Assembly: GCA_024336345.1 (NCBI GenBank) | Contig: JANFOG010000004.1 | Coordinates: 1,116,001 to 1,180,000 of the forward strand | DNA: 64,000 nt | Direction of reading: 5' to 3' | From: Mariannaea sp. PMI_226 | Taxonomy: Eukaryota; Ascomycota; Sordariomycetes; Hypocreales; Nectriaceae | Shown: positions 2,629-50,900 of the stretch, piece by piece | How positions within the stretch are numbered: the first letter of the stretch is position 1 | Layout of the letters: every line of letters begins with the position of its first letter | Made by a program: the position numbers and the translations under genes | The notes under the pieces: generated by a model | Seen by the model: only the letters and a program-made list of their open reading frames with translations | Database searches by the model: none | Told to the model about the DNA's origin: nothing

Positions 2629-5600
2629 ATGAATGAACTTGTCCCAATTCCCGAGCCCAGAGGCCTTCCTCTCCTGGGTAACATCGCGGAGATCAGCGCC
2701 AAGCCCATCCATGATTTCATGCGCCTTGCCGATACGTATGGGCCCATCTACAGGTTGCGGCTTGGCGGCAAGCCGCTTATCATTGCCTCATCCAACGCTC
2801 TTGTCAATGAGCTTTGCAACGAGAAACGCTTTCGCAAGTCACTAAAGACCTCTCAGAGTGTTATCCGGGAGGGCGTACACGATGGTCTCTTTACTGTAAG
2901 CCCTCCAGTTGGTTGACAGATACACCATACGAGTGGTAGAGGTTACCACAATGATAGGATGGCCTTGCTGACTTGATCGATTAACTAGGCATACGAGGAT
3001 GAACCCAACTGGGGCAAAGCCCATCGGATCCTTACTCCAGCATTTGGTCCTCTCCCCATTCGCGCCATGTTTTCGGACATGCACGACATCGCTACTCAAC
3101 TTTGCATGAAGCTCGCTCGTCATGGTCCGCACACTCCCATGCATGTTGCCGACGATTTCACACGTCTAGCCCTCGACACGTTAGCTTTGTGTGCCATGGA
3201 CTTCCGGTTCAACTCCTTCTACCGCGAGGAAATGCATCCTTTCGTACAGGCTATGGGCGATTTCCTCACCGAGTCGGGACACAGAAATCGACGGCCCCCC
3301 CTTGCACCCAACTTCTTGTATCGGGCTGCCAACGAAAAATTCTATAGTGACATTGGTATCTTGAAGGACACCGCCAATGAAGTTGTCGAGGCTAGGAAGA
3401 ACAACCCCAGCTCGAAGAAAGACCTGCTCGGGGCCATGTTGGAGGGCACTGATCCTCAGACGGGCGAGAAGTTATCGGATGAAAATATTACCAACCAGCT
3501 AATAACTTTCCTCATCGCTGGTCATGAGACCACGTCGGGACTTTTATCATTTGCTTTTTACCTGTTGCTCAAGCACCCTGCAGAGTATCAAAAAGTCCAG
3601 GAGGAAGTAGACCGGGTCCTTGGACGTAACCCGATCACCGTTGAGCATCTGGGCAAGCTTCCCTATATCAGTGCTGTAAGTATACCCTTTCTTTTGCACA
3701 TTTTTCTTTTTTTGGATGTAATGCTCATGCCGAAAAAAAAATCCAGGTCCTTCGTGAGACACTTCGTATCCACTCTTCCATCGGAGGCATTGGCGTGGAA
3801 CCTATCGAGGATACTGTATTGGGCGGCAAATATCTCATCAAGGAGGGCGATCTTGTCATTGCACTGCTTGAAAAAGCCCATATTGATCCTGAGGTCTTCG
3901 GTGAAGACGCCAACGAATTCAGGCCTGAGCGAATGACGGAAGAAAACTTCGCCCGGCTTAATGAGCAGTTCCCCAATTGCTGGAAGCCATTTGGAAACGG
4001 GAAGAGGGCTTGCATAGGTAGACCATTTGCCTGGCAAGAGGCTGTAATTGCCGTAGCCATGCTTTTCCAAAACTTCAACTTCACCATGTACGACCCCAAC
4101 TACCAACTAGAGATCAAAGAGACTCTGACGCTGAAGCCTGACGGCTTCGATATGCGTGCAAGCCTCCGCCATGGCATGACTGCTACAGAGCTGGAGAGGC
4201 GCCTAGCCGGAGACACCAACTCTCTTGATGACTCGTCTGCGAAAGCAAAAAAGCAGCAGTCGATGCCTGACTCAAAGGCATCTGCTACGGGAAAGCCCCT
4301 TTCTATATATTACGGATCAAACAGCGGAACTTGTGAAGCAATGGCACAGCGCCTGGCAGCTGACGCCCCAAGTCACGGTTTCAGGGCCTCAACTGTTGCG
4401 CCTCTTGATGAGGCCAGGCAGAATCTGCCCCAAGACCACCCGGTCATCATCGTCACTGCATCGTACGAAGGCGAACCGCCGTCAAACGCTGCTCATTTTG
4501 TCAATTGGATGCAGAGCCTGAAGGGGAATGAGATGGAAAAGGTCAACTACGCTGTATTTGGCTGCGGCCACCACGATTGGGCCCAGACTTTCTACCGCAT
4601 TCCCAAGCTTGTCGACTCGACTCTGGAGAGTCTTGGTGGAACTCGACTGGTTCCCATGGGTGGTGCCGATGCCGCTCGGAGCGACATGTTCAGTGATCTG
4701 GACGCATGGGAAGACGAGAGCCTGTGGCCAGCACTCAAGGAGAAGTACGGGGCTAGCGATAGTGGCGACACTGCTGGCCTACAAGTCGGCATCACCGTTG
4801 AGGTTTCAAACCGGCGTAAAGCAACCCTCCGACAGGACGTGGAAGAGGCCCTGGTGGTTACCACCAAGACTCTCACAACTTCAGGATCGGCTAAGAAGCA
4901 CATTAGCATCCAGCTTCCCACTGGCATGACGTATAAGGCTGGAGACTACCTAGCGGTCCTGCCTTTGAACCCTACGGCTACGGTGGCTCGTGTCCTTCGC
5001 CGGTTTGAGCTGGCGTGGGATGCGACCTTCAAAATACAAGCCGATAGACCTACCTCTTTGCCAACCGGCGTTCCAATTTCTGCGCGAGATATACTGAGCG
5101 CCTATGTTGAGTTGTCACAGCCGGCGACTAAGAAGGTATGTAACTTGTAGCCAACTTTTCGGTCATAACATATATGTATATACATATATTCGGAAGCTTG
5201 TGACTAACCAACGGCAGAATATTATGGCTCTGGCAGAAGCAACTGAAGACAAACCAACTATCAAGGAATTGGAGAAGCTCGCTGGAGATGACTATCAGGA
5301 GAAGGTTGCCTCCAAACGGGTCTCGGTGTTAGATCTTCTCGAGCGATTCACCAGTATCGCTCTCCCCATCGGTGCGTACTTGGAGTTGCTTCCCCCGATG
5401 AGAGTTCGCCAATAGTAAGTCACTTCTCCCCCGTGATAGCCCCCCCTCTCACCCCCGAAAGGTGGCATGTTGTTTGTCGTTGATACAATTGCTCACGCTT
5501 CTTTTGCGCACTTAGCTCAATCTCTTCCTCCCCGCTTGCTGACCCAACCATGGCGACTCTCACGTTCTCCGTTCTTGACGCGCCTTCGCTCTCTGGCCAA

Positions 5601-6194
5601 GGTCGTTACGTCGGTGTTGCCTCCAATTTCCTCGGGGAGCTCTCCCCTGGTGAGAAGCTCCACGTGGCTGTGCGCGCTTCTGCCGCGCCTTTCCACCTAC
5701 CGCGCGACGCAGAGAACACTCCCATCATCTGCATAGCTGCTGGTACTGGCCTCTCTCCCTTCCGTGGATTCGTCCAGGAACGCGCTGCCATGCTCGCGGC
5801 AGGACGGAAGCTTGCCCCCGCACTACTATTCTACGGCTGCCGAGATCCCGAGGTGGACGACCTTTACAATGACGAGTTTGCCTTTTGGGAGAATCTGGGT
5901 GCTGTCCAGATGCGGAAGGCATATTCTCGTGCCACGGACAAATCAGAGGGCTGCAAATATGTCCAGGATAGAATTTACCACAACCGTGCCGATATCGTTT
6001 CTCTCTGGCCCCAGGGCGCAAGGGTGTACATTTGCGGCAGCCGAGAGGTTGGCAAGGCGGTTGAGGAGACATTGATCCGAATCTATCAGGAATGGGTTCT
6101 AGAGAACATGGACAAGGAGATAAGCCCGGAAGAGTCGAGGGAGTGGTTCGATAACATCAAGAACGAGCGATTTGCCACCGATGTGTTTGATTAG
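2629..6194 (+). CDS. CYP505-type P450-reductase fusion, fatty-acid hydroxylase (P450foxy family)
   Basis: Self-sufficient cytochrome P450 fused to its NADPH reductase. The family hydroxylates fatty acids near the omega end (omega-1 to omega-3) using NADPH and O2. Proposed exons are 2629-2895, 2989-3675, 3747-5135, 5218-5414 and 5516-6194, giving 1072 aa, close to the roughly 1066 aa of P450foxy. Visible landmarks are the I-helix AGHETTSG, the K-helix ETLR (about 322-325), the heme loop FGNGKRACIG with Cys407, the FMN loop YGSNSGTCEA (about 507-516), the FAD motif RQYSISSSP, which is completed only after the fourth intron is removed, and the NADPH loop CIAAGTGLSPFRG. There is no signal peptide or N-terminal anchor, as in soluble CYP505 proteins. 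All key residues are present and no frame is broken. It converges on the ErdS-like gene. A biosynthetic-cluster role is not suggested by the neighbours. Confidence 0.95.
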
Positions 6195-7051
6195 ATCAGC
6201 TATAGATGGACAAACATGACAGCCAGGACTTGATGAAGTGAATACGATTTACAAACAGAAAGAACATAGAATGAGAATATTTCTAATTCGAGATTTCCAA
6301 AGCACACCTCCTCCGACTACACGAACTACATCTATATACACATACATATGTATGTATGTTTGCCCGTAGGCAGTAGAAGTTATGTTGAGGTAGACATGAT
6401 CAAGGTAATTGACGTGACACTGTGGACTACTTCGGAAAAATACAAGCCCAGAGCACACCAACGCCCTCACTCCGGTGGTCATGGAATCATACATATAAAG
6501 AAAAAGAATAAAGAGTCCAATTTTTTGCTCTCTTTTTTGTATTTTTATACTTTTACTGTGGTATAAACTACCAACCTTTGCCCTGCCATTCAATGTTATT
6601 TGTCTTTCTCCGCCCATCTAAAAGGTATCAAGGGTGAAGTAAGAGTAGCAAAGAGAGAAGAAAAAGAATGAAAGGGAAAAAAAAAAAAGGAATCTTTGTC
6701 CAACACCACTAGTAGGAAAGGGAGAGACACAAAAAAAAAAACCAATCCTGACGCCTGCCTTCGTACCAAGGACACACAAAACTAAAAGAGCATCACACAT
6801 CATGATTTCCGTCTGAATATTGAAAAGAAAGACAAAAACGAAAAAAGGGGAATATTCCAAAGCGGCCGTGACGTTATCGTTATGATCATGGTGTGTGATG
6901 TTTCCAAACTAGAACCTTTCCCCCTCTACCCAAATCCTCCCCTTTCCCATGTATTGGCGTTGTCTGCACAATATTCGAAACCAGGTTTTTTCCCCTGTTT
7001 TTTTTTTTAGGCTTCGACCACCATGGTTCCGTGTTTATGCAATAAATTTTT
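6195..7051. other. Convergent spacer between the P450 and ErdS-like genes
   Basis: An 857 bp spacer between two 3' ends, rich in A/T homopolymers (A runs near 6679 and 6731, a T run near 7001). It should hold both 3' UTRs. No gene was seen on either strand. Confidence 0.6.
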
Positions 7052-9907
7052 TTAGTCTTGGAAAAACTTGATGATTTGCTGCATATCGCGCAGACCAACA
7101 CCATGCTTGGGGTAGCAGATGTACACCTCCTCACCGAGAGCGCCAAACTTGGATCGGAAGCTAGCCTTGCGGCGGAGTCCGAGACTGTCGACAATAGATC
7201 GGTAGGTCGCGGAGAGGAAACGGGCACGGAGGCCGGAGAGGTGCTCGCCAGGAGTAAGCTTCTCCGAGACGCCAGCGCCAAAGGTCACCTTGCCAGTAAC
7301 ACTGTCCAGGGCGTGTCCGATAAGCACTTCAATGGCGCCGTTTGTGGCACCGGGGAAGTCGAGAGCCCACTTGACCTGCCATCCGTGGCGGGGAGCGAGC
7401 TTGTGAAGCACAACCATGGAGAGCACCTTGCCGTCCTTCTCAGCAGCGAAGTAACGACGATGCTCGGGATCAACCCATGGGCGGACTTCAGTGAGATGGA
7501 CCTGCTTGCCCTTGCGAGAGCCCTTCCAAGCCTCGATTGCGGGGTCGGCGCGGCTCATAAAGTCGGCATCGGCCTTGACTTCGTGGATTTTGATTCCCTC
7601 GCGTTCAACGCGACGGGCCTTGGCGGCAAGGTTGTTGGCCTGGTTGGCAGCCTTGAGGGACCGTCGATCAGTGTCGACACGCTGCTCCTCAGTACACGAC
7701 AGAGTTCTCCAGTGAAGCTCCTTGGCAAGAATCTTCTGCACGTCAAAGGAGACGAGCATCCAGAGCGGAGTCAAACGTCGTTCAGAGACGAGGTATTTGA
7801 CAAAGTCGCGGATAACATCAGCATACTGCGATTGGTCGCAAAGAGGATCGCCAGTGACCATGGCGAACTTCTCCTGGGGAACCCAGCCGATAGCTGCGCC
7901 GCTGGAGTGTCGCCAGATCTCGAATCGGTCGTCCAGCCAGGAAGTGTTGGACGCATCGCCATAATTGGCAATGAGCTTCTCTAGCGCCGGTTGGACTCCG
8001 GCAGGGTGGGGCTTGGTGGTGTCGGCTTCGGGGTGGGGCAGGCCCGGTGCCTTCTCGGGGAGGGACTTGGGGTCACGGTGGAAGAGCGACGCGTATCGGA
8101 CGTCACCCAGCTCAAGCATCCACGCGACAATACGCTCAAGACCAAGACCAGCACCAGCGTGTGGCGGGGCACCGAGGTCGAAACCAGTGAGGTAGTCCTC
8201 CATACCATCATCAGTCATCCCAGCAACAGCCATGCTTGCGCGCAGCTCGTCGGCGTTGTGAATACGCTGGCCACCGGAGCAGATCTCCTGGCCACGAATG
8301 AAGATGTCGAAAGATCGGGTCCACTTGGGGTCTTCAGGGTCCTTTGCAGTGTAGAAAGGGCGGGCGTTGGTAGGGAACTTGTCGAGAACGTAATAGTCGG
8401 TACCGTACTTCTCCCGGACCAGCTGACCAAGACGCATTTCGTCGGGAGTGGAAAGATCCTCCTCCTCAACGTCGCGACCATCATCGCGAAGCATCTGAAT
8501 GCCCTCGGTGAAGGGAATGATGGGGGTCTGCTCGAGCCACTTGAATTCAGAGCTGGGCCATCGCTTGCGAATGACTTCAACCTCAGGCATGCTGTAGACA
8601 GCTCTGAAGGTGGCCTTCAGGAATTCATCAAGGATCGCAATCACTTCATGGTAATCATACTCAATTGCCATTTCGATGTCAAGACCCGTGTATTCTGTAA
8701 GGTGGCGATGGGTGTTGGAATTCTCGGCGCGGAAAACGGGGCCGACCTCGAAAACGCGGCCAAAGTCGGCAGAAATAGACATCTGCTTGGCGAGCTGAGG
8801 GCTCTGAGCAAGGAATGCGCGACGACCGAAGTAGCTGACGGGGAAGACAGCAGCTCCACTCTCCGTGGCAGCGGGCTGCAGCTTGGGAGTGTTGATTTCG
8901 ACAAAGCCCAGGTCCTCGAGGGTGTTGCGGAAAGTTCGAGCAACAGTGGAGCGGACTCGGAAGAGAGCCTGGTTTGCGGGATGTCGCAAATCAAGAATTC
9001 GCGAGGACATACGGTTGCGAAGGGTCTCTGGGGGTTTGTAGTTGGTGAAGGCCAGGTTCGTGGCCGCATTGACGAGGTGGATAGTCTCAATGTCGACCTC
9101 GACGCAAGAGTGAGTGGCAGAGCGAATAGGCTCAGGGGGCTCCTTCAAGGTGCCGGAGACTTGAACCAGCGACTCAGGAGCAATCTTGCGAACCCATTTC
9201 ACGAAGTCGGTATTACCAGCGTCGCGGGCTAGAACACCCTGGACTGAGAAGGTCTGGTCTCGTAGGAGAAGGAAATCAAGGTGCTTGGAGAGGGGACGCT
9301 GAGTCTCAATGCGAGCGCGGAAAGTGACCTCAGTGCCAATGGGGAGGGTATCGAGCTCAGTAACTGTGTTCAGTTCGTACGGGTGCGTAGGCCAGTCTTG
9401 ACTCATAGTCGTGCGAGTGCTCTCTGTCGAAGTTCGGCTGCTAGTTGGGGTTTTGGTGCCAGAATTGACCAGAGACATTGCCATTGCCATGGCGCTTCGA
9501 GGAATGCCCCCGGTGAGGCTTTGAAGGCTCTCCCGGCTGAAGTCATCCATGCTGGTCCTCGCAGACTTGACCTCGACAGGACTATCGCTATTGCGAAATC
9601 TGTTGATGGGTGCGCGGACAGAGGTGGATCGCGATCGAGGAGGAGGTTTAAACGATTCGGAACTGTAGGTAATGTGTCCATTTAGGTCGGTCATCATGGT
9701 AAGGTCGTGCATGGATCGGTTATGAGGCTCTCCGGCGCGAGCGAGCGCTCTTGCACTTGAACGGGGGGACATATTTGAGAATGTGGAAGGAGATGACGTG
9801 ACGGGAGAAGAAGGAAGGGACGAGATGGAATTATTGAATTGATGCTTTAACGGGATCATGCCAAAGGCAGAGCTTGTTGGGGTAACAACCCCCGATGAAG
9901 CCGTCAT
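7052..9907 (-). CDS. erdS: AspRS-DUF2156 fusion, ergosteryl-3beta-O-L-aspartate synthase (ErdS-like)
   Basis: A 951 aa intronless protein with an aspartyl-tRNA synthetase fused to a C-terminal DUF2156 (double GNAT-like) aminoacyl-transferase domain. In the known ErdS system, the synthetase part charges tRNA-Asp and DUF2156 moves Asp onto the 3-hydroxyl of ergosterol. Residues 1-170 are Ser/Thr/Pro-rich and probably disordered. An OB-fold anticodon-binding domain spans about 178-285. The class II core follows at about 300-612, with motif 2 around FEVGPVFRAEN (386-396) and motif 3 around GAGLGLERI (585-593). DUF2156 spans about 635-951 and ends in YPKHGVGLRDMQQ. Ordinary cytosolic AspRS ends shortly after motif 3, so the extra 300 residues separate this gene from a housekeeping AspRS. 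The start at 9907 is the first ATG of the open frame. An alternative Met near residue 168 would remove only the disordered part. A hydrolase gene lies divergently upstream. Confidence 0.93.
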   Translation of the reverse strand: MTASSGVVTPTSSAFGMIPLKHQFNNSISSLPSSPVTSSPSTFSNMSPRSSARALARAGEPHNRSMHDLTMMTDLNGHITYSSESFKPPPRSRSTSVRAPINRFRNSDSPVEVKSARTSMDDFSRESLQSLTGGIPRSAMAMAMSLVNSGTKTPTSSRTSTESTRTTMSQDWPTHPYELNTVTELDTLPIGTEVTFRARIETQRPLSKHLDFLLLRDQTFSVQGVLARDAGNTDFVKWVRKIAPESLVQVSGTLKEPPEPIRSATHSCVEVDIETIHLVNAATNLAFTNYKPPETLRNRMSSRILDLRHPANQALFRVRSTVARTFRNTLEDLGFVEINTPKLQPAATESGAAVFPVSYFGRRAFLAQSPQLAKQMSISADFGRVFEVGPVFRAENSNTHRHLTEYTGLDIEMAIEYDYHEVIAILDEFLKATFRAVYSMPEVEVIRKRWPSSEFKWLEQTPIIPFTEGIQMLRDDGRDVEEEDLSTPDEMRLGQLVREKYGTDYYVLDKFPTNARPFYTAKDPEDPKWTRSFDIFIRGQEICSGGQRIHNADELRASMAVAGMTDDGMEDYLTGFDLGAPPHAGAGLGLERIVAWMLELGDVRYASLFHRDPKSLPEKAPGLPHPEADTTKPHPAGVQPALEKLIANYGDASNTSWLDDRFEIWRHSSGAAIGWVPQEKFAMVTGDPLCDQSQYADVIRDFVKYLVSERRLTPLWMLVSFDVQKILAKELHWRTLSCTEEQRVDTDRRSLKAANQANNLAAKARRVEREGIKIHEVKADADFMSRADPAIEAWKGSRKGKQVHLTEVRPWVDPEHRRYFAAEKDGKVLSMVVLHKLAPRHGWQVKWALDFPGATNGAIEVLIGHALDSVTGKVTFGAGVSEKLTPGEHLSGLRARFLSATYRSIVDSLGLRRKASFRSKFGALGEEVYICYPKHGVGLRDMQQIIKFFQD

Positions 9908-12900
9908 GTCTGCGAGTTGGTGTGGTTGTTCAAGGTGGGTCTTGGTCTTGGTCTCGGGACGAGCTGAACCACAATTCGGGGCAAATGGTGACGATAACGA
10001 TTGTTAGTTTTTGGTTATCCGGGCTGTAAATCAGCGGCGAAAATCAGGGACGGCTTGGCAATTCGTTTGCGTTGGGTCAAAACGATCCTTGTCAAATGAT
10101 AAATGATCGCCGTGTCAGCGGGATGGAAATTCGACTCCAGATCAAGGCAGGCGAAGACCAGGCGAGGCGAATATTGATGATGGTGATGATGATGATTATG
10201 ATAGCTAGTAATGTAGCTACACCAACACAGGTTTATTTTAGACTGATGAGAGAACAAAAAAAGAAGAGCAGACTAATAAATCCAGTTACGGAAGCGATAG
10301 GGCGGCCAGTCTTATATACCAGGGAGCTCTCGGATTATGGAGTACGATTGCCAACGGATTCACACACACCCTCCCTAAAGATATGGATACACAACACAAC
10401 AATAGACTTACTGTAGGTACGTATGAGAGAAAAAAAGAACCGAAGCCAAAACGAAATGGCCTCAATGGAATGCTTGCTTACCTGACGGCACCCCTCTCGG
10501 GCCCGAAGTCAAAAGCCGGGCGCGCTAGCTAGGGCGGCATGGGAGCTCATGATTCGGCATTTGGAGGCATTTGGAGGCACTTGGTGAGCATAGCTTGGAG
10601 TTTGATATGGGGGTCATGCTCGCGGCCAACCAGAAGAGCGCGCGTGCCGAGTTATCCCCTCCTGGCGTGTTACTCTCGATCAAGCATCAAGTAAGCAGCG
10701 GTGATGGACGGCCATACTATCTCTGTAAAGTCGCGCGCGGGTCGCTGCCATCGCTTTTTTGCTTACAATTCCGCACGGACATGCGGGCTGCGGCTTGTCC
10801 GGCTTTATCTTCTCTTCTTTTTTTTTTCGCTTCGGGGGCGTTATCAAATCCGGTGTTGCGGAGCCCTTTCACAAGCTCGACAAGCTTGTACACACGCCCC
10901 CATGAGACAAAAAGCTAGAAAACCGTACGGATTGATGTGCTAGTAGGGTGGTTTTTTTTTTCGGAGAAGCTATTTTGAGGACTAAGTTGATTGCTTCTTG
11001 TGTTTGGTTTCACTGAAGCAATCCTTGTCCTCTTCTCTTCTGCGGCAAATACATAGTATTAATTAGTAAGACAAAGCACATGGGTTTCGCAATTAATTGC
11101 ACCCAACCTGGCTTGGCTCTGGTTTTCCATTTTCCATAGTCTTGCTTTCTCTAGTACGTAATGACTGCTCCGCTCTCCTGTCTTGCCGCGGAATATTTCA
11201 AGGGCATGGACGAACTGACAGGAAGGTTGGTACAGTACTGGAGCTGGTGGAGGAGAGACTACGTAGTGGTGTGTGGTCATCATAGCACCCTACCTAAGGC
11301 ACACAAGCTTCAATGATTGCTTTCGTACTTCGTATAATTAGAAGGGACGCTTTACTCCGTACTTTCAGTACCATCACAAACCTACGCGATACTTGTGGTA
11401 CTGGGAGGGGCACTAGCTGGCGGGGATGTGCCGTCTCCCGTCTGGGCATCAAAGTAAGTTGCGTGTTTGATGTAACTCAGTTGAGAGTCACGGCAAGCCG
11501 CGTGAAGGCGTTGACGGTACATCGGTGCTCCGGTGGTGATCGCTGAATGACAACCACAAGCATGATTCTACGCCGTATGCGGGCGTCCAGCGGGACCAAG
11601 CCGTAAATGTACCACATCACATCCAATCCATAGTCTGTAGAGTGCTGGACCATGTACTGTTTCCACTGCACACACTTCGCTCCTTGTGCAATAAAGTTAG
11701 GCTTCTGACTTTTTTTCCGGTCTGCCGGGTTGTAACAGATGTAGCATGATTTGGCGCCAAGCGCTCCTAGGCCGTTGAGGTAGACGAGGCACATGTTTTG
11801 AGCTGCCCATCCTTTCTCCTTTTGTTGCGGTTTTCTACCTTTGAGGTGCTACATACGCGGAACGCACCATTTGCAGACAAGGGGGGAAGAGAGAGAAGCA
11901 ACTTTGTGAAGCTACATAGTACATCAGAAGAACAGAAAGGACTTACCCAGGTACTCCGTGATTTTTGCATCCCTACATCCTTTGGGCATTCAAAGCAGGG
12001 TCTAAGAATGTGCATCTGCATTCCGTCAAGATCCGTTTCTATTGCTTTCTGTGACGTCAACCATTGACAGAATGAATCGGATGTGCCGGGTTGGAGCGCG
12101 GGCCTTTGCAGGGGGACGGGCAGAGGAGACCCCACACCAGTGCGTTCCTCGGTTTGGGTCCTTTTTTCTTTTTCCCCTCTCATTCACTACTGTACCAAAA
12201 CTGCCTAGGTAATTGCTTATGTATCCGTAATTATAGCACTCTTCTTCGAGACGCGGCATGGAAGGCCTAACCAATCGAGCCACTCGAGTATCATGCCACT
12301 ATTGGCTCTGCGGACGCTAGATCCACCAGACGCCGCCAGACGTCATCAATCAGCACGTCAAAGGCGGCCAAGGAAGGTCAGGCAGGGCCAGCAAGGTCAG
12401 GATGGCTAAGGAAAAAGAGAGGCACCACCAGTGATTCCTCCACTTCCTCCGCTTCCTTCACCCGCGACGCAGCGGTCTCTGTCCTCTTTGCCCACTATCT
12501 GCACTCCACTTCGACCACTTTGACCACTTTGACCACTGCTTCCATCATCAAGCATCACTGACGACATCGCCCTTTACCCTTCTCGAATGAGCAAGGGCCC
12601 CCTCCCCAGTCCAGCCAATTTTCGTTCAGCCCTGTAAACTCGCCGATGCTCGCCAGCTTCCGGCGAACCTTCTGCTTTTTTCCATTCTGCCTGTTCCTTT
12701 TTGTGCATGTCTGCCGTTTTTTCCTCCTTTCGGCTGGCAAATCTATCTACCTACTACATTCATAGTAGTATGATTAGGATGGGTGGCTATCACTCTTATT
12801 AATGAATTAACTAATCAATTGCCGTGTTGTTTGGCTGCCAAGTATTTGGTTTGTTAGTCCATTCATCCAACCTGGCCTTCGGCCTTTAGAAGCCAGCCTC

Positions 12901-13436
12901 CATATCAGCCTCCATATCAAGTCCCCCCCCTTCTTCAGAGACACGGCTTCTTGTCTCACTCTTGTCTGACCTGGCCAGTACAGCAACACCCCATTTCGCC
13001 TCTTTGCCTCTTCCCCCTTCAGCCTATCAACCTATTCGCTGCCAGTCTTCCCTCCCATCCCATCCACATAAACTGACAGGTAGGTACGCAACTACCACCT
13101 GACTCAGGGCTGACAATCCCTCCTTTGCCTCCCCCAGAGTTAGCCCAGGCGGCCCCCCTCCCCCAGGCCCTTTCAATACCTGCCACAAAATCCCATTCGC
13201 TGTTGCATACTCCTGACACTCCCCCCCGGTTCCGTAGACACTAAACCACGTGTTAAACCGCATTCCTCCTCTGACTGTGCTCTTGGCGACCCTCTCAGGT
13301 TCACCTTTTCCCTCACCTTACCTTTACTTTTTGCTCTTTTCCGACCATCCGGCCACCGAAATCCCTCCTCGCGTTGTGGGCACGCCGGTAGCATCCGCTG
13401 GGCTCTGGCACAAGGCCAGAGTCACCCTCCCTCATC
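9908..13436. other. Long divergent spacer between ErdS-like and hydrolase genes
   Basis: About 3.5 kb containing both promoters. It shows a purine-rich stretch with ATG/ATGATG repeats (about 10177-10205), several poly-pyrimidine runs towards 13437, a 9 bp triple repeat near 12511, and one TACTCCGTA word (11353-11361). Short open frames are present on both strands, but none has a recognisable domain or plausible splicing. I see no RNA gene. Confidence 0.5.
12511..12537. repeat. Three 9-bp direct repeats (TTGACCACT type)
   Basis: Three head-to-tail copies of a 9 bp unit: TCGACCACT, then TTGACCACT twice. The array lies 0.9 kb upstream of the hydrolase start. It may be a simple repeat or a cluster of protein-binding sites; the sequence does not decide. 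Confidence 0.7.
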
Positions 13437-14576
13437 ATGGAGTTGCCCCCCACCGACTCTAACCCTACTATCCCGGAGCCTGAAGGGTACATCAACCCCC
13501 TTGAATCCAGCTCACGCTGGTATCTCCTCGCCAGGGCTCAAGCCATCCGATCTGCTGCCAGCCTAGGCTTCAGTATCGCCAACCGTACCGATCCTCCCGC
13601 GCCAGAGCCATCCCGTGAGATATTGCTTGACGCCACCCTCGCCCCAGGTTTTGAAGGGAAAGCCAAGATCAAGGCCGAGGTATGGGTCCCTCCTCGGCCT
13701 TGCATCGGGGCCCGCCCTGCCGTTATCAACTTTCATGGAGGAGGATGGATTCTCGGTCAAGGTATTGACAATGCTCGCTGGGCTGGCACCATTATAGCCA
13801 ACATAGATGCTGTTGTCTTCTCCATCAACTACCGCCTCGCTCCATCGTATCCCTTCCCTACTCCCATTGAGGATTGTGTCGATGCTGTGCTCCAGATTAA
13901 GCATCGTGCTGCCGAGTTCGGCATCGACCCAGATCGCATCGTCCTCTCGGGCTTTTCTGCTGGTGCTACCAATGCCCTGGCGAGTTGGGTCATACTCAAC
14001 GATCCTGATAGATGGGGTTACAATTTCACAATCACTCCACCACGCATTGTTGGCCTTTGCGTCTACTACCCTGTCCTTGATTGGACAGTTACACGCCCGG
14101 AGAAGCGTCTGACGTGTTCCCGCCCTGACCTCACTCTCCCCAAGGGCCTCACTGATCTCATCGATGCCTCTTATATCTACCCGCCCATCCCCAGACTAGA
14201 CCGGACAGACCCGCGCCTATCCCCGGGTCTGATGCCTGATGAGCTGTTGAAGAAGCTGCCGCCGGTTCATCTTGTACTCTGCGAGTATGACATGTTGCTG
14301 TCGGAGGGCAAACAGTTTGCCAAGCGACTTCGGGAGGCCGGCAAATCGTTCACCATGCGTCTAGTAGAAGGAGAAAAGCATGCATGGGACAACCCACCTC
14401 CTCTGACTCCCAAAGCTACTGTTGCGATCGAATATCTAGAGGCAGTTCAAACCATCGCCTCCTGGTTGGGCCGTGAGTGCGAGACGGATACTGATTCAAT
14501 GAGATCGGTGAAGATGAAGCGACCTACCCTTAAACGACCAAGATATCTGTCTTTCAAGTCGTGGTCTGGGAGGTAA
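13437..14576 (+). CDS. HSL-like alpha/beta-hydrolase, candidate ergosteryl-aspartate hydrolase (ErdH-like)
   Basis: A 379 aa single-exon alpha/beta-hydrolase of the hormone-sensitive-lipase type. The oxyanion motif HGGG is at residues 100-103. The nucleophile elbow GFSAG has Ser174. The likely acid is Asp285 in CEYDMLL, and the likely base is His315 in EKHAW. The catalytic set is complete. No signal peptide is obvious; residues 27-47 are only mildly hydrophobic. The C-terminal tail is basic (KMKRPTLKRPR). The family cleaves carboxyl esters, and related fungal enzymes (SAY1 group) deacetylate sterols. It is the next gene upstream of, and divergent to, the ErdS-like gene. In the ErdS system a hydrolase, ErdH, removes Asp from ergosteryl-aspartate. 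Assigning this gene to that role rests on fold plus neighbourhood, so it is an inference. It could instead be a general esterase. Confidence 0.88.
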   Translation: MELPPTDSNPTIPEPEGYINPLESSSRWYLLARAQAIRSAASLGFSIANRTDPPAPEPSREILLDATLAPGFEGKAKIKAEVWVPPRPCIGARPAVINFHGGGWILGQGIDNARWAGTIIANIDAVVFSINYRLAPSYPFPTPIEDCVDAVLQIKHRAAEFGIDPDRIVLSGFSAGATNALASWVILNDPDRWGYNFTITPPRIVGLCVYYPVLDWTVTRPEKRLTCSRPDLTLPKGLTDLIDASYIYPPIPRLDRTDPRLSPGLMPDELLKKLPPVHLVLCEYDMLLSEGKQFAKRLREAGKSFTMRLVEGEKHAWDNPPPLTPKATVAIEYLEAVQTIASWLGRECETDTDSMRSVKMKRPTLKRPRYLSFKSWSGR

Positions 14577-21424: not shown

Positions 21425-24195
21425 ATGGCGGAAGGAAAGACCGACGGCGGCGTGCCCGGTAGCAGTCATAGCCGCAGCGGCAGCAGGTTTGGGTTCAGCA
21501 AGATGCTTGGTGAGATCAAGGACAAACTCAACGACACTAAACTTGAGGAGGCCAAAATTCACCTGATTCACCAGAAGTCAGTTTCATTCTACGCTTGCAG
21601 GCCAGCTTCTCAAATACTGACCGTGATTAAAGGCACAAGATTGGAAAGCTCGCCAACATTGTGAGTGTCTCAGAGAACATTAACCTTTTCACGCACTCTC
21701 CCGCTAACATGCATAATCTTAGGTCAATCCTAACCATAGGCATGACGAAGAGCACGAACAACGATGCGACGCAAAGCGCACCAAGATTTGCGAATCCCAC
21801 AGATACAAATCTTACTTCCCAGAACGTGAAGGCAACCTGGTCAAGTGGTACGTAGATGGTCGCGATTACTTTTGGGCCGTCTCCGTCGCTCTCGAGCAGG
21901 CCAAGGAGTCCATCTACATCGCCGATTGGTGGCTTTCGCCAGAGCTTTTCCTCAGACGCCCACCCTATTACACCCAGGAATACAGGTTGGATAAGATCCT
22001 CAAGAAGAAGGCAGAAGAGGGCGTCAAGATCTTTGTGAGCGTTTACAAGGAGGTCGAGCAGGCGCTGACCTGTAATTCGGCGCATACCAAACATGCTCTC
22101 AATCGTCTCTGTCCCAAAGGGAGCCCCGGTTACGGCAATATTCGAGTGATTCGACATCCTGACCACAACCCGTTCGAGAACCTCGCAGATGTCACAGTCT
22201 ACTGGGCGCACCACGAAAAGTTTATCGTCATCGACTACTCCATGGCCTTTATTGGCGGTCTCGACCTCTGCTTCGGGCGATGGGATGCCCACCATCATCC
22301 CCTCTCCGATGTCCACCCCGAAGGTGTTCAAGAGGAGGTTTTTCCAGGCCAGGACTTCAACAACAACCGCATCATGGACTTTAAGCAGGTATCTCAGTGG
22401 CAGGAGAATGAGTTGAGCAAGGCTGAATACGGTCGCATGCCCTGGCACGACGTTGCCATGGCCGTCATCGGCCCTTGCGTCTACGATATCGCGGAGCACT
22501 TTGTCCTGCGCTGGAACTTTGTCAAGCGCGACAAGTACAAGCGCGACGAACGTTTTGATTGGATCATCCTAGAGGGCCGCGAGGGCGAAGATGAGGATCT
22601 CGTTGGTGTCCAACGTCCCAAACACCCGGTCGGCGATTACGTGAAGCATCCCTTGACGCCTCTATCAACCAAAAATCTCGACAACAGAGGAACTGTCAAG
22701 GCGCAGATTGTCCGCTCCAGCTCTGACTGGTCTAGTGGCATCCTCACAGAACATTCTATTCAAAATGCCTACAGCGAAATCATCCGTAATGCTGAGCATT
22801 ACGTCTACATTGAGAACCAATTCTTCATCACCGCAACTGGTGATCAACAACGACCCATTCAAAATACCATCGGTCGAGCAATGGTTGACGCTATCGTTCG
22901 TGCTGACAAGGAGAAGAGAAAGTTTCGCATCATTGTCATTATCCCCGCAATCCCTGGATTCGCTGGTGATTTGAGAGAGAACGCAGCGTCAGGAACGCGT
23001 GCGATCATGGACTATCAGTACAAGAGTATCTGTAGAGGCGAGCACTCCATATTTGGACAATGCAGAGCGCAAGGCGTCGACCCAACCAAATATTTCTTCG
23101 TCTTCAACCTGAGATCTTACGACCGTCTGAACAAGACACCTGGAATTACGGAAACTGAAAAGAAGACGGGTATCAGCTACCAGCAAGTCCAACGTGCCGA
23201 GGCTGAAGAAATTATGGCCGAAGGTATTCACGGAACGTACGATCCTCAGGATGATGAGGGAGATCAGCACATGCGAGGAGAGATGAAGCAATTAGAGATG
23301 GATGAATCTATCAGGAGGACCATGGAGGCTAGGAAGATTTTTGAGGAAGCCATGCCCCATGAGAAAGTAATATCCTCCTCTTCTGTAGCCCACCATGCCA
23401 TGGCTGGATCTGGTCCATTGACAGATGAGCCCTGGTACGAAGAAGATCCTGAGCTGGAAATTCAGAACTGGATTCAAGAAGAGCTGTACGTCCACGCCAA
23501 GTTGCTCATTGCGGATGACCGAATCGTCGTGTGCGGCTCAAGCAACCTCAACGACCGCAGCCAGGAGGGTGACCATGACAGCGAGCTCAGCATTGTCATG
23601 GAAGATACCCGAAAGATCGAGATTAAGATGGATGGTAAGCCTTTCCAAGCCGGATACCACGCTACTACGCTTCGCCGGTACCTGTGGCGGGAGCACCTCG
23701 GCCTGCTCGGTCCTCAGGATCTCGATGCAAAGAACGACATCAACGCCCAGCCGCCGTCGGTCGTTCCTGAAAACAATGTGCTGGATAAGGACGCGACTTG
23801 GTTGATTACTGAGGACCCGTTGTGCGATGAGTTGTGGGAGAGGTGGACTGGGCAGGCGGAAAAGAACACTTTGATCTTCCAGCACCTGTTCCACGCAGAT
23901 CCCAATAATCACAGTGCGTAGCTGCTATTCACCCTTTTCTATTTATTTTTCGACCGTACAAACTAACTTAAATCTTTTAGTCAAAACTTTCGAGGATTAC
24001 GATCGGTTCCTCCCTCCTCGTGGAGTCAAGGCCGGTCACATCTTTGACCAGTTCATGCCCGCTGAGGACGCACGCAAAAAACTCAGTCAGATCAAGGGTC
24101 ATCTGGTATACCACCCGTTGGAGTTTCTACGAGATGCCGAGATGGCGGAGAGAGGATTGCAGGTCAATTCTTTCACAGAAAGTGTCTTTACTTGA
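21425..24195 (+). CDS. Phospholipase D, two HKD motifs
   Basis: Hydrolyses phosphatidylcholine-type lipids to phosphatidic acid and the headgroup at membranes. Proposed exons are 21425-21576, 21633-21660 (only 28 bp), 21723-23913 and 23981-24195, giving 861 aa. Both catalytic HxKxxxxD motifs are present: HEKFIVID with His224/Lys226/Asp231, and HAKLLIAD with His651/Lys653/Asp658, the latter followed by GSSNLNDRS. A conserved IENQFF box lies between them. The N-terminus is short and has no PX or PH domain, unlike yeast Spo14, so this is the compact PLD form common in filamentous fungi. The tiny second exon is supported because it joins in frame on both sides (KHKIGKLANI). The start at 21425 fits a normal leader; an in-frame ATG at 21338 gives a poor-looking extension. 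Confidence 0.95.
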
Positions 24196-28127: not shown

Positions 28128-31082
28128 ATGGCGCAATCTCCCATGATATCCGTGCCTCTCAAGGCCACCAACGAAATCGATTGGGTAGCGCCCCTCAAGG
28201 GATATATTCGTGATACATACGGTGATGATCCCGAGAGGTATGCTGAGGAATGTGCAACACTCAATCGTTTGAGGCAGGACATGAGGGGTGCTGGGAAGGA
28301 TAGTACTGCCGGGAGAGATATGCTATATCGCTATTATGGCCAACTCGAGCTTCTTGACTTGCGCTTCCCCGTGGATGAGCAGCACATCAAGATCGCTTTT
28401 ACATGGTTAGTCTCGACTGCCTTGGGAAACCAGGAACTATCAGCGCATTCAATCACTAACACTCACGCCACTTAGGTTTGATGCATTTACTCATAAATCA
28501 ACTGCGCAATACTCCCTTGCATTTGAGAAAGCTTCCATCATTTTCAACATTTCCGCCATTCTATCCTGTCATGCCGCTGCCCAAGACCGAGCCGATGAGT
28601 CGGCCCTCAAAACCGCATACCACTCCTTCCAAGCCTCAGCAGGCATGTTCACATACATCAACGAGAACTTCCTCCATGCGCCGTCCTCAGATCTGAGTAG
28701 AGACACAGTCAAAGCTCTCATCAACATCATGCTTGCGCAGGCCCAAGAAGTCTTTCTTGAGAGGCAGGTAGCCGATAGGAAGAAGATTGGATTGCTTGCG
28801 AAACTCGCCTCTCAAGCAGGATATCTATATGGTCAAGCACTGGAGGGAGTTCAAGAAAATGTCAACAAGGCTATTTTTGAGAAAGTTTGGTTGACATTCA
28901 TCCAGGTAAGCCCTTTCCAGTCTTGGGATCCTTTATTACGAAGCCATACTGGGCACTGAGCTAACAATTTCAGATCAAAACAAACCTTCTGAGCTCGATG
29001 GCCCAGTATTATCAAGCGCTCTCCGACGACGATGCTAATCACCACGGTGTCGCCGTTGGTCGGCTCCAGATCGCGGAAGATCAGGCCAAAGAAGCTGATC
29101 GGTTGGCTCGAAACTTCCCCGGCTCTGTGCCCCCTAGCTCGAACCTTACCGCCGACTGCGGCGGATTCCTTCAAGAAATCGCTAAACGCCATTACTCTAC
29201 TGTTCACGACAAGCTCCAAGAGCTCATCAAGGATAACGATTACATATATCACCAAACTGTCCCTGCGGAAGCCAGCCTGGAACCTGTTGGCAAGCTCCCA
29301 GCTGCGAAGCCCATCCCTGTTAGCGAGCTTTATGCCGGCCAAGATATCTCCAGAATCACCGGGCCGGACCTGTTTGCCAAGATTGTTCCCTTTTCCGTGA
29401 CTGAGTCTGCAAGTTTGTATGACGAGGAGAAAGCGAAACTCGTGAGAGCTGAGACCGAGAAGGTTGATACTGCCAATGGCGAGATGGCAGCAAGCTTGGA
29501 TTATCTCAGATTGCCCGGCGCGCTTCAGGTGTTGAAAGGCGGATTTGATCATGAAATTGTTTCTGACGACGACTTCCGACAATGGTGCGAGGATGTTTCG
29601 AACCACGAGAACCCGGTCACCATTTTTGATTCTCTCAGAACACAGAGAGATGCAATTCTCACCTTACTCGAAAAATGCGCAAAATCTCTGGATATGGAGG
29701 AGGGCGTGTGTGAGAAGATGCGGTCCAAGTACGAGAGTGACTGGACTCAGCAGCCCAGCTCGAGCTTAACGACAACTTTGCGAACCGACATACGAAACTA
29801 CCGGGAGGCACTGGATGAAGCTTCAAGCAGTGATAATCAGCTAGCGGGCAAGCTCCGCTTAAATGAAATGGATTTCGACGAGATGAGAAGAGCAGCCCAT
29901 GCAGGAGAAGTTGATCAGTTATTTCAGAGAGCTGTTGCTCAAGCACGAGCAAAGGGAAGTAATGCTGCCAGTCCGGCGGGCATTGAGCCCAACCTTCTCG
30001 ATGCCGACTTCGATGATGGCCCTAGTGTAATGGATCAGATTAACAAAGTGGAGGAAATCCTGAAGAAGCTTAACTTACTTAAGCGGGAGCGGAATCAGGT
30101 CCTAAAGGACTTAAAGGAAAAGGTAAATCATGATGTTTATGTATGTGTTGTCAACTGGGAACTCGCTCGCTGACAATGTTTAGGCCCACAACGATGACAT
30201 TTCGCAAATTCTGATTTTGAACAAGAAGTCCATCTCGAATTACGAAGCACAGTTGTTTGAGCAAGAGCTTGAAAAGTTTAGACCTCATCAAAGTCGGCTC
30301 CAGCAGGCCAATCATAAGCAATCAAGCCTTATGAAGGAGCTCACAGCCACATTCAACAACCTGCTCCAGGATAAGAGAGTGCAGTCCGAGCAGAGCAAGT
30401 ACGAAGCCATTCAGAGGAATCGGTCGACAGTTGTCAACCGGTACAAACGTGCCTATCAAGAATTCTTGGATCTGGAAGCGGGACTGCACAGCGCTAAGAA
30501 CTGGTATGCTGAAATGCGGGAGACAGTTGACAGCCTAGAGAAGAATGTCGAGGCCTTTGTCAACAACCGAAGGGCCGAGGGAGCAGCGCTTCTCAATCAA
30601 ATCGAACAAGAGCGAGCCTCAAACAAAAATTCTCATGCCGAAATGGAACAGGAACGACTCCGGGAGCTTATGAATAGAATGTCAATGGATCCCAGTAAAT
30701 CATCACCACAACCTCAGGCCTCGGGCCGGCCTGCGCCGGCGCCTATATTCCAAGCCGGCCAGGCCCCTCGGTACCCGAGCTATCAGGGACAGTATCAGGG
30801 TCCTGCTTCGCCGCCTGCTACCCAGCAGCCAATGCAGCACTCAACTTATCAGGGCTTCCCGGGTCAAGGAGCTACTCAGTCCTTTAGCCCAACGCCCGCC
30901 AATACTTATGGTGCGCCGAGCTACAACCCCAGTCAATACGGCCCCACTCCAGGGCCAACGTCTCCTCCCCCAAACCAATCGACTTTTGGCATGAACGCGA
31001 TGCGAGGACCGACATCACCACCAGCTAACCAGGCTACGTTTGGACATCGCCAATCATATGGTTCTTTCAGCGGGGTTCAGCC

Positions 31083-31113
<31 letters not shown>

Positions 31114-31284
31114 CGCCAATCAGCTTCTTATGTACCACCCGGTTTCGTGCCACCACCTCCCCCTCCTGGACCCCCTCCGTTAGGACCTCAACAGACAATT
31201 CACTATGATGCCTCAAACCCGCATGCTCAGAATGCGCAGCAACAGCCCTATGATCCCTGGGCTGGATTGAATTCTTGGAAATAG
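28128..31284 (+). CDS. bro1: BRO1/ALIX-family vacuolar protein-sorting protein
   Basis: ESCRT-III-associated adaptor for multivesicular-body sorting, which in yeast recruits the deubiquitinase Doa4 to endosomes. Proposed exons are 28128-28405, 28476-28905, 28974-30122 and 30184-31284, giving 985 aa. The N-terminal BRO1 domain (about residues 1-390) starts MAQSPMISVPLK and contains the typical FTWFDAFTH stretch, which is rebuilt across intron 1. A coiled V-shaped domain follows to about 730. The C-terminus (about 740-985) is a Pro/Gln/Tyr-rich tail with a nine-residue Gln run and PPPPPPG. The paralogue PalA/Rim20 (pH signalling) also has a BRO1 domain but a different N-terminus and is usually shorter, so BRO1 is preferred. 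The CAG run at 31084-31110 lies inside the coding tail. Confidence 0.93.
31084..31110 (+). repeat. CAG microsatellite in the BRO1 tail (9 units)
   Basis: Nine consecutive CAG codons encode polyglutamine in the Pro/Gln-rich tail. Length variation between strains is expected. Confidence 0.9.
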
Positions 31285-42945: not shown

Positions 42946-43102
42946 ATCTCCTTGTTGGCCCGATAGCTCTCCCCACAGGTTTCTCCCCGGGCGGAAGAGT
43001 TAGTTCCCTAGGTGTCGGCCCATTTTTGGCGGATACCCTCTCTCAACGCTGCCCGCATCAGCGCTCTCGTTTCAACCCAGTCTTGGTTCTGGAGTCACCA
43101 AT

Positions 43103-45335
43103 ATGGAAGGGGCTTATCAAGGCTCCTCAACAGAAGCCTCCGCCGTTGCCTCCGGGGGGCCCAAGAAGAAGGCTCGCAGAGGAGTTGATCCAGCTGGGCG
43201 AAAGCGGAGATGCGTGAGTACTGCTTGTATCGCCTGTCGCAAGCGAAAATCCAAGTGTGATGGTGCTGTTCCAAGCTGCGCTGCTTGCTCCAGTGTCTAC
43301 GGGACTGAGTGCGTCTATGATCCCAATTCAGACCATAGACGCAAAGGCGTCTACAAGGAAAAGGTCGACAGCATGAAAGCAAGGAACTCAACCTTGCAGA
43401 TTCTCATCGAAGCCATCCTCAATGCAGATGAAGATGATGTCCTCGAAGTTGTGAGGCAAATCCGGACATGCAATAGTCTTGACACTGTCGCCGAACAGAT
43501 TCTCAAACAGCAGCAACAACAAGAGCAGGAAGCTGAGCAGGCTCAACTACTCGATCAGAATGACACCCAGGAGCCATCCAATGACCACCCGGTGGAAGGC
43601 GAAAGGGACCTCGCAAGGAAAATGGGTGAACTCAGGCTTGAGAATGGTGCTGTCCGATTTATCGGCGGGACCTCTCATCTCATCTATCTCGGCGACCCCC
43701 ACAATGGCAGTGATAGCCAGCCAAATATCGATGATTTGGCTTTCGGTGAGGACCCAATCACAACGTGGACTCAAGTTACCAAGGACAAAAAACTCATCAC
43801 CCATCTCATGAACATGTACTTTAACTGGCACTACCCATATTTTACGACACTTTCAAAGACCATGTTTTTCCGTGATTTCTTGAAGGGCAAAGCCGGGATT
43901 GGACGCGAGACTGCCTATTGCTCTTCGCTCCTAGTCAATGCCATGCTTGCCCTTGGATGCCACTTCACCAGTGTTTCTGGTGCCTATGGCGTCCTGGGGG
44001 ATAGTCGGACGAAAGGTGATCACTTCTTTGCCGAAGCGAAGAGACTCATTATAGAAAATGACGAATATGAGAAGCCTCGTCTGGTTACCGTCCAAGCACT
44101 GGCTCTCATGTCTGTGCGAGAGGCGGGCTGTGCCAGAGAGGCTAAAGGTTGGGTATATAGCGGGATGAGCTTCCGCATGGCAGAAGATATCGGCTTGAAT
44201 CTCGATGTCAGCCAACTCGACCAGGCGCGCATGAGCGACTATGAGGTAGACGCCAGGCGTGTAACGTTTTGGGGTTGCTACCTATTCGATAAATGCTGGT
44301 CCAACTATCTTGGAAGACTGCCACAAATACCTAAGAATTCCTTCAATGTTCCCAAGGTCGAGGTCTTCCCCGATGAAGACTCCCAACCGTGGTCACCATA
44401 TACCGATAATGGATTCGATCAATCTTCCATGCAACCTTCACGAACACGCGCCGCTGCTCTGCAGCTTTCAAAGCTCTGCGAGGTCAGCAGTGACCTCTTG
44501 GCCTTCTTCTACCACCCTAGTACCATCAATCGCTCTAGTGGTAAAAGTGTTGAGCTCAAAAAGCTGAGTGAGCTGCACCGTCGTCTAGAGGATTGGAGAA
44601 AGGAGCTTTCCCAGGAGTTCGAACCCAGAGAAGGCCAACTGCCTAATGTCCTCCTCATGCAGTAAGTAACTGGACGCGACTGCTCCATACTATTTACCAT
44701 GCATTCTAACAGAAAAAAACAGCATGTTCTTCCACCTCCAGTACATCCACCTCTTTCGACCATTCCTAAAATACACCCCAGCCGTATCGCCTCTTCCGCC
44801 TCATGTCTCCCCCCGTCGCATTTGTACCGCAAATGCAGGTGCCATCTCTAAGCTGTTCCGTTTATACAAGAAGCTGTGGAACTTGCGCCAAATCTGCAAC
44901 ATTGCCGTTTACATGCTGCACAGCGCCTGTACCATTCACCTACTAAACTTACCAGAGAAGACTGCAAGACGGGACATTACACATGGTGTAAAACACCTCG
45001 AGGAAATTGCAGAAGATTGGCTGTGCGCGAGGCGGACACTCAGCATTCTCAGTGTCCTAGCTCGAAAGTGGAAATGCGAATTACCAGAGGATGCCGCGAT
45101 TGTCCTTCAACGAGCAGATGAAAAATACGGAACGTATAGCACATCAGACGTTCCATCGCCACGTTCGACAACTGGCTCATCGCCAAACTCGGACATTAGC
45201 CTTGGGCTTCCATCAGGCCGTGAATATAGTCCATTCACTCAATATACCCAAGCACAACTTGCTCGACCAATGCAATCATCAGGAGTTGCCAACCCCCTCA
45301 CTACGAGTGTACCGCATTCCGTAGGCGTTGCCCAT

Positions 45336-50787: not shown

Positions 50788-50881
50788 ATGTAGACGGTCA
50801 TAACCTCTTGGTTTCATTCAGAAACTCTCAGTCGCCTCCCCAATTACCAGGGTCGAAAACTCACTGATGCGATACACTTGA
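50788..50881 (+). promoter_or_regulatory. Two minimal upstream ORFs in the XYR1 leader
   Basis: An ATG directly followed by TAG lies at 50788-50793. A four-codon frame (ATG, Arg, Tyr, Thr, stop) lies at 50867-50881, its stop only 19 bases before the main ATG. Such short frames close to the start usually lower translation. A leader intron could remove the first one. Confidence 0.4.
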
Positions 50882-50900
50882 AAGAGGACAGGCAGGCGAC

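What the first reader, a model, noticed from the sequence alone, without database searches (positions are those of the whole stretch)
7052..14576. Linked AspRS-DUF2156 fusion and HSL-type hydrolase: a candidate sterol-aspartylation module
Seen: an AspRS with a C-terminal DUF2156 domain, and a complete HGGG/GxSxG/Asp/His hydrolase as the next gene, divergently placed. Known: fungal ErdS makes ergosteryl-aspartate from Asp-tRNA and ergosterol, and an ErdH hydrolase reverses it. Inference: these two genes are the writer and eraser of one sterol modification. I believe such neighbourhoods have been reported in other fungi, but I could not check this.
Basis: partly seen in the sequence, partly recalled or inferred. 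Interest (0 to 1): 0.75.

Follow-up and report, generated by a model that had tools for sequence, protein, structure and literature searches.

The report
Fungal sterol-aspartate writer and eraser genes
Two neighbouring fungal genes look like the already described enzyme pair that attaches aspartate to ergosterol and takes it off again; less expected is that in a number of related fungi a P450 oxygenase gene lies next to them as well.

Summary
Window 7055-9907 (-) encodes one 951-aa protein, AspRS plus C-terminal DUF2156, colinear with solved AspRS-DUF2156 chains. Window 13437-14576 (+) encodes a 379-aa HSL-type hydrolase whose HGGG, GFSAG, Asp and His are invariant in 21 of 21 aligned rows. 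The genome (contig length equals that of Mariannaea sp. PMI_226) also has a separate AspRS without DUF2156, one detected DUF2156, and no close second hydrolase: 685 bits against 88 for the next. JGI names two relatives of the first Erg-Asp synthase and one of the second putative Erg-Asp hydrolase. I read the pair as ErdS and ErdH, a known pathway. Linkage recurs: 24 contig lengths are shared between the 120 listed relatives of each, null mean 0.18. My control spoke against linkage as specific proof: the gene on the other side, a CYP505-type P450-reductase, shares 12 and 11. The block P450-ErdS-ErdH is the less expected part; inherited gene order is its likelier cause. The characterised ErdH sequence and the founding paper were not available.

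The parts
7055..9907 (-). erdS-like gene, single exon, 951 aa: variable N-terminal extension (about 1-170), OB-fold (194-260, below Pfam's cut-off), class II AspRS catalytic domain (298-611), DUF2156 / LPG_synthase_C domain (653-932)
   Evidence: alignment to solved AspRS-DUF2156 chains; 15-row alignment
7112..7951 (-). DUF2156 (LPG_synthase_C) domain of ErdS, residues 653-932; the only match to this family found in the 42.2 Mb genome
8075..9016 (-). AspRS catalytic core of ErdS, residues 298-611, with QSPQLAKQ 368-375, FRAENSNTHRH 392-402 and GLGLERI 587-593; all but A373 of these positions invariant in 15 of 15 rows (the window's protein and its public copy P0123 among them)
9908..13436 (.). 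3,529 bases between the two divergent start codons; presumed promoters and 5' leaders (inference); no tRNA, no Rfam match, no Pfam match in the four frames of 100 aa or more lying wholly inside
13437..14576 (+). erdH-like gene, single exon, 379 aa HSL-type alpha/beta hydrolase; HGGG 100-103, S174 (GFSAG), D285, H315
2629..6194 (+). CYP505-type cytochrome P450 fused to NADPH-P450 reductase, 1072 aa, five exons (2629-2895, 2989-3675, 3747-5135, 5218-5414, 5516-6194); convergent neighbour of erdS and recurrent neighbour in related fungi
   Evidence: (100% to Mariannaea sp. PMI_226 protein P0243); the name CYP505 is by resemblance to P450foxy, not by a formal assignment

Best explanation
The two genes are the fungal Erd pair. 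ErdS charges tRNA-Asp with aspartate in its AspRS part, then its DUF2156 part moves the aspartate from the tRNA to the 3-beta hydroxyl of ergosterol, giving ergosteryl-3beta-O-L-aspartate. ErdH, a serine hydrolase of the hormone-sensitive-lipase type, cleaves that ester and gives ergosterol and aspartate back. The pair thus writes and erases a charged head group on membrane sterol. Shown here: gene structure, domains, catalytic residues, close family relations, a separate AspRS without DUF2156, no rival ErdH found in the genome, recurrent linkage. Inferred from the literature on relatives: the reaction, the substrate and its reversal.
For: Domain order AspRS-DUF2156, colinear over residues 183-951 with solved chains 9w9e/9w9f/9w9g (E 2.3e-236 to 1.6e-228); the third chain differs from the second in the AspRS motif 2 region, which suggests, without proof, an aminoacylation-defective variant of a bifunctional enzyme. 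A separate AspRS without DUF2156 lies at C19:663269-664379, so the fusion is an extra copy. Of 12 JGI-named rows among the 120 listed ErdS relatives, 2 are called ergosteryl-3beta-O-L-aspartate synthase; of 6 JGI-named rows among the 120 listed hydrolase relatives, 1 is called putative Erg-Asp hydrolase. A family profile built from 20 relatives without the window's protein scores it 684.6 bits and the next best among the 30 fetched loci 88.3. 24 contig lengths shared between the two lists of 120, null mean 0.18, maximum 3 in 2,000 draws. PMC9437257 (passages) describes ErdS as AspRS plus DUF2156 making Erg-Asp; PMC12186260 (passage) says that fungi including A. [quoted passage not shown]
Against: Adjacency is not specific: the P450 gene recurs as a neighbour too. 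No product was measured.
Confidence: 0.88

Rival explanations
1. The fusion is simply the fungus's cytosolic AspRS with a dispensable tail, serving translation, as many public names say.
For: Where the listing shows a specific name it is mostly an aspartate--tRNA ligase name (for example 'Probable aspartate--tRNA ligase', 'dps1'); the AspRS motifs are intact.
Against: A separate AspRS gene with a lysine-rich N-terminal extension and no DUF2156 match in its two large frames lies on another contig; the DUF2156 part is present over its whole length in 15 of 15 aligned rows, the window's own and its public copy among them.
Confidence: 0.05
2. The hydrolase is a general HSL-type esterase or arylacetamide-deacetylase-like enzyme, next to erdS only by inherited gene order.
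For: Nearest solved structures are general carboxylesterases; 5 of 6 JGI-named relatives are called acetyl esterase/lipase and several NCBI names are arylacetamide deacetylase or lipase; the P450 gene recurs as a neighbour too.
Against: One relative at 71% bears the Erg-Asp hydrolase name; no closer candidate among the 30 fetched Abhydrolase_3 loci of the genome; many invariant positions beyond the catalytic residues in 21 rows.
Confidence: 0.09
3. The three-gene block P450-ErdS-ErdH is conserved gene order of Hypocreales without functional meaning.
For: The P450, chosen as a control, is linked about as often as the hydrolase when only rows with an NCBI source are counted (12, 12 and 10 shared contigs; my count). 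ErdH and P450 are on different contigs in the 4 of 4 other species that I tabulated (Thyridium and three Colletotrichum), though some of these may be different assemblies. I had no protein search left to measure the background of gene order.
Against: The order P450-ErdS-ErdH, ErdS in the middle, is seen in 3 of the 4 listed genomes whose locus tags show all three genes (the fourth, Cordyceps sp. RAO-2017, has them on three contigs under 9 kb); but inherited order predicts this as well.
Confidence: 0.7

Closest known systems
ErdS, ergosteryl-3beta-O-L-aspartate synthase (Yakobov et al. 2020, PNAS, not held; described in passages of PMC9437257)
   Same: AspRS fused to a C-terminal DUF2156 domain; a second AspRS gene in the genome; JGI-named ErdS relatives at 76 and 78% identity over the searched region
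   Different: No difference found; activity not measured in this organism
ErdH, Erg-Asp hydrolase of the same pathway (recalled from the 2020 abstract; paper not held)
   Same: HSL-type alpha/beta hydrolase with full catalytic set; a 71%-identical relative is named putative ergosteryl-3beta-O-L-aspartate hydrolase
   Different: Direct comparison with the characterised ErdH was not possible
ErgS, Erg-Gly synthase (PMC10449517 passage; that it is a freestanding DUF2156 is recalled)
   Same: DUF2156 sterol aminoacyl transferase
   Different: The window's DUF2156 is fused to AspRS; no second DUF2156 match was found in the genome
[quoted passage not shown] PMC9437257 passage)
   Same: Same logic: synthetase and lipid aminoacyl transferase in one chain
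   Different: Lysine and glycerolipid; in NCBIfam's LysX model the synthetase part is C-terminal, here it comes before the DUF2156 part
P450foxy, CYP505A1 of Fusarium oxysporum (PMC4387584 passage)
   Same: The neighbour P450 is a self-sufficient P450-reductase fusion, 71% identical to a Fusarium oxysporum entry (P0255); whether that entry is P450foxy itself was not checked
   Different: Substrate of the window's P450 unknown; P450foxy hydroxylates fatty acids at omega-1 to omega-3

Membership tests
ErdS | AspRS domain followed by a DUF2156 domain in one chain | tested here: met
   colinear with 9w9e/f/g over residues 183-951
ErdS | Class II AspRS active-site motifs kept | tested here: met
   15 rows; alignment to AspRS chain 1eov
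ErdS | An additional AspRS without DUF2156 in the same genome | tested here: met
   C19:663269-664379, two large frames, no DUF2156 match in them:
ErdS | Makes ergosteryl-3beta-O-L-aspartate | not testable with these tools
   needs lipid analysis
ErdH | HSL-type alpha/beta hydrolase with HGGG, GxSxG, Asp, His | tested here: met
   model with mean pLDDT 79.7 and HSL-type esterases as best folds
ErdH | Orthologue of the characterised ErdH | tested here: inconclusive
ErdH | Hydrolyses Erg-Asp | not testable with these tools
   needs enzyme assay
ErgS | Freestanding DUF2156 (recalled) | tested here: not met
   the only DUF2156 match found in the genome is the fused one
CYP505 / P450foxy type | P450 fused to FMN/FAD/NADPH reductase in one chain | tested here: met
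   p450, Flavodoxin_1, FAD_binding_1, NAD_binding_1; solved relatives

The most novel reading that the evidence does not exclude
The Erd locus of Hypocreales is a three-gene unit: the CYP505-type P450-reductase next to ErdS acts on the same lipid pool, for example hydroxylating ergosteryl-aspartate or the fatty acids that compete for ergosterol, so that sterol aspartylation is coupled to an oxidation step.
Probability: 0.12. Interest if true: 0.6.

Novelty: new member of a known kind. Interest (0 to 1): 0.3.

Why it matters
It gives a likely function to a gene that public records tend to name as an aspartate-tRNA ligase, and to a neighbour whose relatives are named arylacetamide deacetylase, lipase or alpha/beta hydrolase. 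If the P450 link is functional, it would be a lead to what else the cell does with aminoacylated sterols, whose role is, to my knowledge, unsettled.

Tried and rejected
Founding papers: look-ups of the PNAS 2020 paper and the JBC 2022 paper failed because they are not held; what I say of their content beyond the passages seen is recalled. Paper searches for the pathway led me to passages of PMC9437257, PMC10449517, PMC12186260, PMC12492740 (24, reference list only) and PMC10580965; in those passages gene order is not mentioned, and I did not read the papers whole. A search for three or more of CYP505, P450foxy, aspartyl-tRNA synthetase, microsynteny, Hypocreales found 0 papers; that does not show that the block is unpublished.

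A scan of bacterial and archaeal contigs with the fusion (a single protein, so close relatives only) had 5 pattern matches and no relative. I therefore took equality of the 'longest contig' length in the protein listings as a stand-in for 'same contig'. The lists are capped (120 of 534, 1549 and 7765 matches), rows are clusters at 90% identity, and lack of a shared length does not show lack of linkage.

Left out although the species name occurs in two lists, because tags or contigs point to different strains or I could not tell: Metarhizium rileyi (ErdH 1,257,521; P450 1,114,318), Trichoderma gracile, Fusarium avenaceum, F. lateritium, F. falciforme, F. pseudograminearum, F. oxysporum, Beauveria asiatica. 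None of these left-out species shares a contig length, so each would count as a miss by that measure. Not even-handedly, I kept Drechmeria and Ustilaginoidea as misses although their tags also differ by strain. Other misses kept: Cordyceps RAO-2017, Stylonectria, Aphanocladium, Cylindrodendrum, and the four species that I hold to lie outside Hypocreales. Orders and families of fungi are recalled; no taxonomy call was made.

Three P450 rows (P0255, P0278, P0294) without a contig length were dropped (117 of 120 used). One of the 12 ErdS-P450 contigs is the window's own. The idea that linkage proves a writer-eraser pair was given up as too strong after the P450 control. A tree of hydrolase paralogues was not made; the profile gap was taken as enough. 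The 30 loci (L002-L031, the window's gene among them) are those fetched of 33 matching stretches. One sequence was typed by machine rule only: none from memory.
Full report
What is there. The minus-strand gene at 7055-9907 is an uninterrupted 951-codon frame. Pfam finds tRNA-synt_2 at residues 298-611 and LPG_synthase_C (DUF2156) at 653-932; two NCBIfam aspartate--tRNA(Asn) ligase models score above their cut-offs. The plus-strand gene at 13437-14576 encodes a 379-aa Abhydrolase_3 protein with HGGG at 100-103, S174, D285 and H315, invariant in 21 of 21 rows, 20 of them chosen relatives. A predicted model (mean pLDDT 79.7; residues 350-368 and 371-379 under 50) matches HSL-type esterases best.

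Which organism. The window's contig in G000 is 3,963,717 bases long, the same as the longest contig of P0123 and P0243, both named Mariannaea sp. PMI_226, and P0243 is 100% identical to the window's P450. So the window is most likely from that strain.

Is it ErdS? The fusion aligns over residues 183-951 with three solved two-domain chains. Its own genome has a separate AspRS gene with a lysine-rich N-terminal extension and no DUF2156 match in its two large frames. One DUF2156 match was found in the genome, so no ErgS was seen; the search is exon by exon and could miss a split gene. Of 12 JGI-named rows among the 120 listed relatives, 2 are called ergosteryl-3beta-O-L-aspartate synthase and 10 aspartyl-tRNA synthetase. 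PMC9437257 (passages) describes ErdS as this fusion.

Is the neighbour ErdH? The 120 listed relatives (of 534) include one named putative ergosteryl-3beta-O-L-aspartate hydrolase (P0018, 71%); the other five JGI names are acetyl esterase/lipase. In the own genome 33 stretches match Abhydrolase_3; the best-scoring other match to P0002 is 32% identical over residues 122-316. A profile from 20 relatives, without the window's own protein, scores the window gene 684.6 bits and the next of the 30 fetched loci 88.3. Thus, if this fungus has an ErdH of this family, it is this gene. The step from this family to the characterised enzyme rests on one label, because sequence and paper were not at hand.

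Linkage in other fungi. With all 120 listed ErdS-like and all 120 listed ErdH-like rows, 24 contig lengths occur in both lists, some of them short (10,171, 13,077, 15,671, 19,423 bases); lengths jittered by up to 5% give a mean of 0.18 shared, at most 3 in 2,000 draws. Locus tags show direct neighbours in Hirsutella minnesotensis (HIM_02718/02719), Claviceps sp. LM454 (E4U14_000755/000754), C. citrina (E4U41_003767/003766) and C. lovelessii (E4U54_006203/006204), and one number between in Cordyceps javanica.

The control. I used the last protein search on the gene on the other side of erdS, a CYP505-type P450-reductase (2629-6194). It was meant to show whether the pair is special. It showed that the P450 recurs too: 12 contig lengths shared with ErdS (one of them the window's own), 11 with ErdH, 5 with both (117 of 120 rows usable; null means 0.10 and 0.07). 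The count of 24 for ErdS-ErdH includes 12 contigs from unannotated sources (lgn, ena), where a five-exon gene is seldom predicted whole (inference); among rows with an NCBI source the three counts are 12, 12 and 10 (my count). Locus tags show P450-ErdS-ErdH with ErdS in the middle in Hirsutella (02717-02718-02719), Claviceps LM454 (756-755-754) and Cordyceps javanica (3004-3003-3001), that is in 3 of the 4 genomes whose tags show all three; in the fourth, Cordyceps RAO-2017, they are on three contigs under 9 kb. ErdS and P450 have successive tags in Metarhizium humberi and Ophiocordyceps australis; P450 and ErdH have one number between them in Neonectria magnoliae and Conoideocrella and, if its numbers go by tens, in Cosmosporella. 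In the hand-made selection, ErdH-ErdS is linked in 12 of 15, ErdS-P450 in 13 of 15 (the window's strain included), ErdH-P450 in 10 of 13 entries that I hold to be Hypocreales, and ErdH-P450 in 0 of 4 others; misses and eight left-out species, which would lower these numbers, are told in Tried and rejected.

Reading. The pair is very probably the known Erd writer and eraser. The linkage is real but not specific evidence for it. The three-gene block is the part that I did not find described (0 papers in a limited library). Inherited gene order is the likelier cause; a functional tie of a lipid-oxidising P450 to sterol aspartylation is the bold alternative, testable by gene removal and lipid analysis.

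Noticed in passing
window 2629-6194 (+): CYP505-type P450-reductase fusion that recurs next to erdS and erdH in related fungi; the best other match to its P450 part in the genome is 36% identical.
   Followed up: yes
window 9173-9202 (-), residues 236-245 of P0001: The public protein of this gene (P0123, 798 aa) starts at an internal Met (residue 144) and lacks ten residues (VKWVRKIAPE) encoded by 30 bases that begin with GT and end with AG; the other 14 aligned rows have that stretch, so the public gene model probably contains a false intron.
   Followed up: partly
window 13437-14576: No identical public protein was listed for the hydrolase (best 86%), although P0123 and P0243 of the same strain are public; the gene may be missing from the public annotation.
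   Followed up: no
G000 whole genome: No second DUF2156 match, hence no ErgS seen: the fungus would make Erg-Asp but perhaps not Erg-Gly.
   Followed up: partly
window 14487-14573: C-terminal tail of the hydrolase is rich in Lys/Arg and kept in most of the closer relatives, but short or absent in the four lowest-ranked rows (P0103, P0104, P0109, P0122); possibly a membrane-surface anchor.
   Followed up: no
window 21723-23921 (+): 732-aa frame with phospholipase D motifs; with 21627-22568 (-), which overlaps it, the first frames of 230 aa or more to the right of the hydrolase.
   Followed up: no
window 28965-31284 (+): Two successive frames with BRO1 and ALIX V-domain matches, presumably one Bro1/ALIX-type gene in exons.
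   Followed up: no
window 43004-44665 and 50868-53750 (+): Two frames with Zn2Cys6 and fungal transcription factor domains.
   Followed up: no
window 7046-7984 and 7985-9232 (+): Long open frames (312 and 415 aa) antisense to erdS, probably a by-product of codon usage.
   Followed up: no
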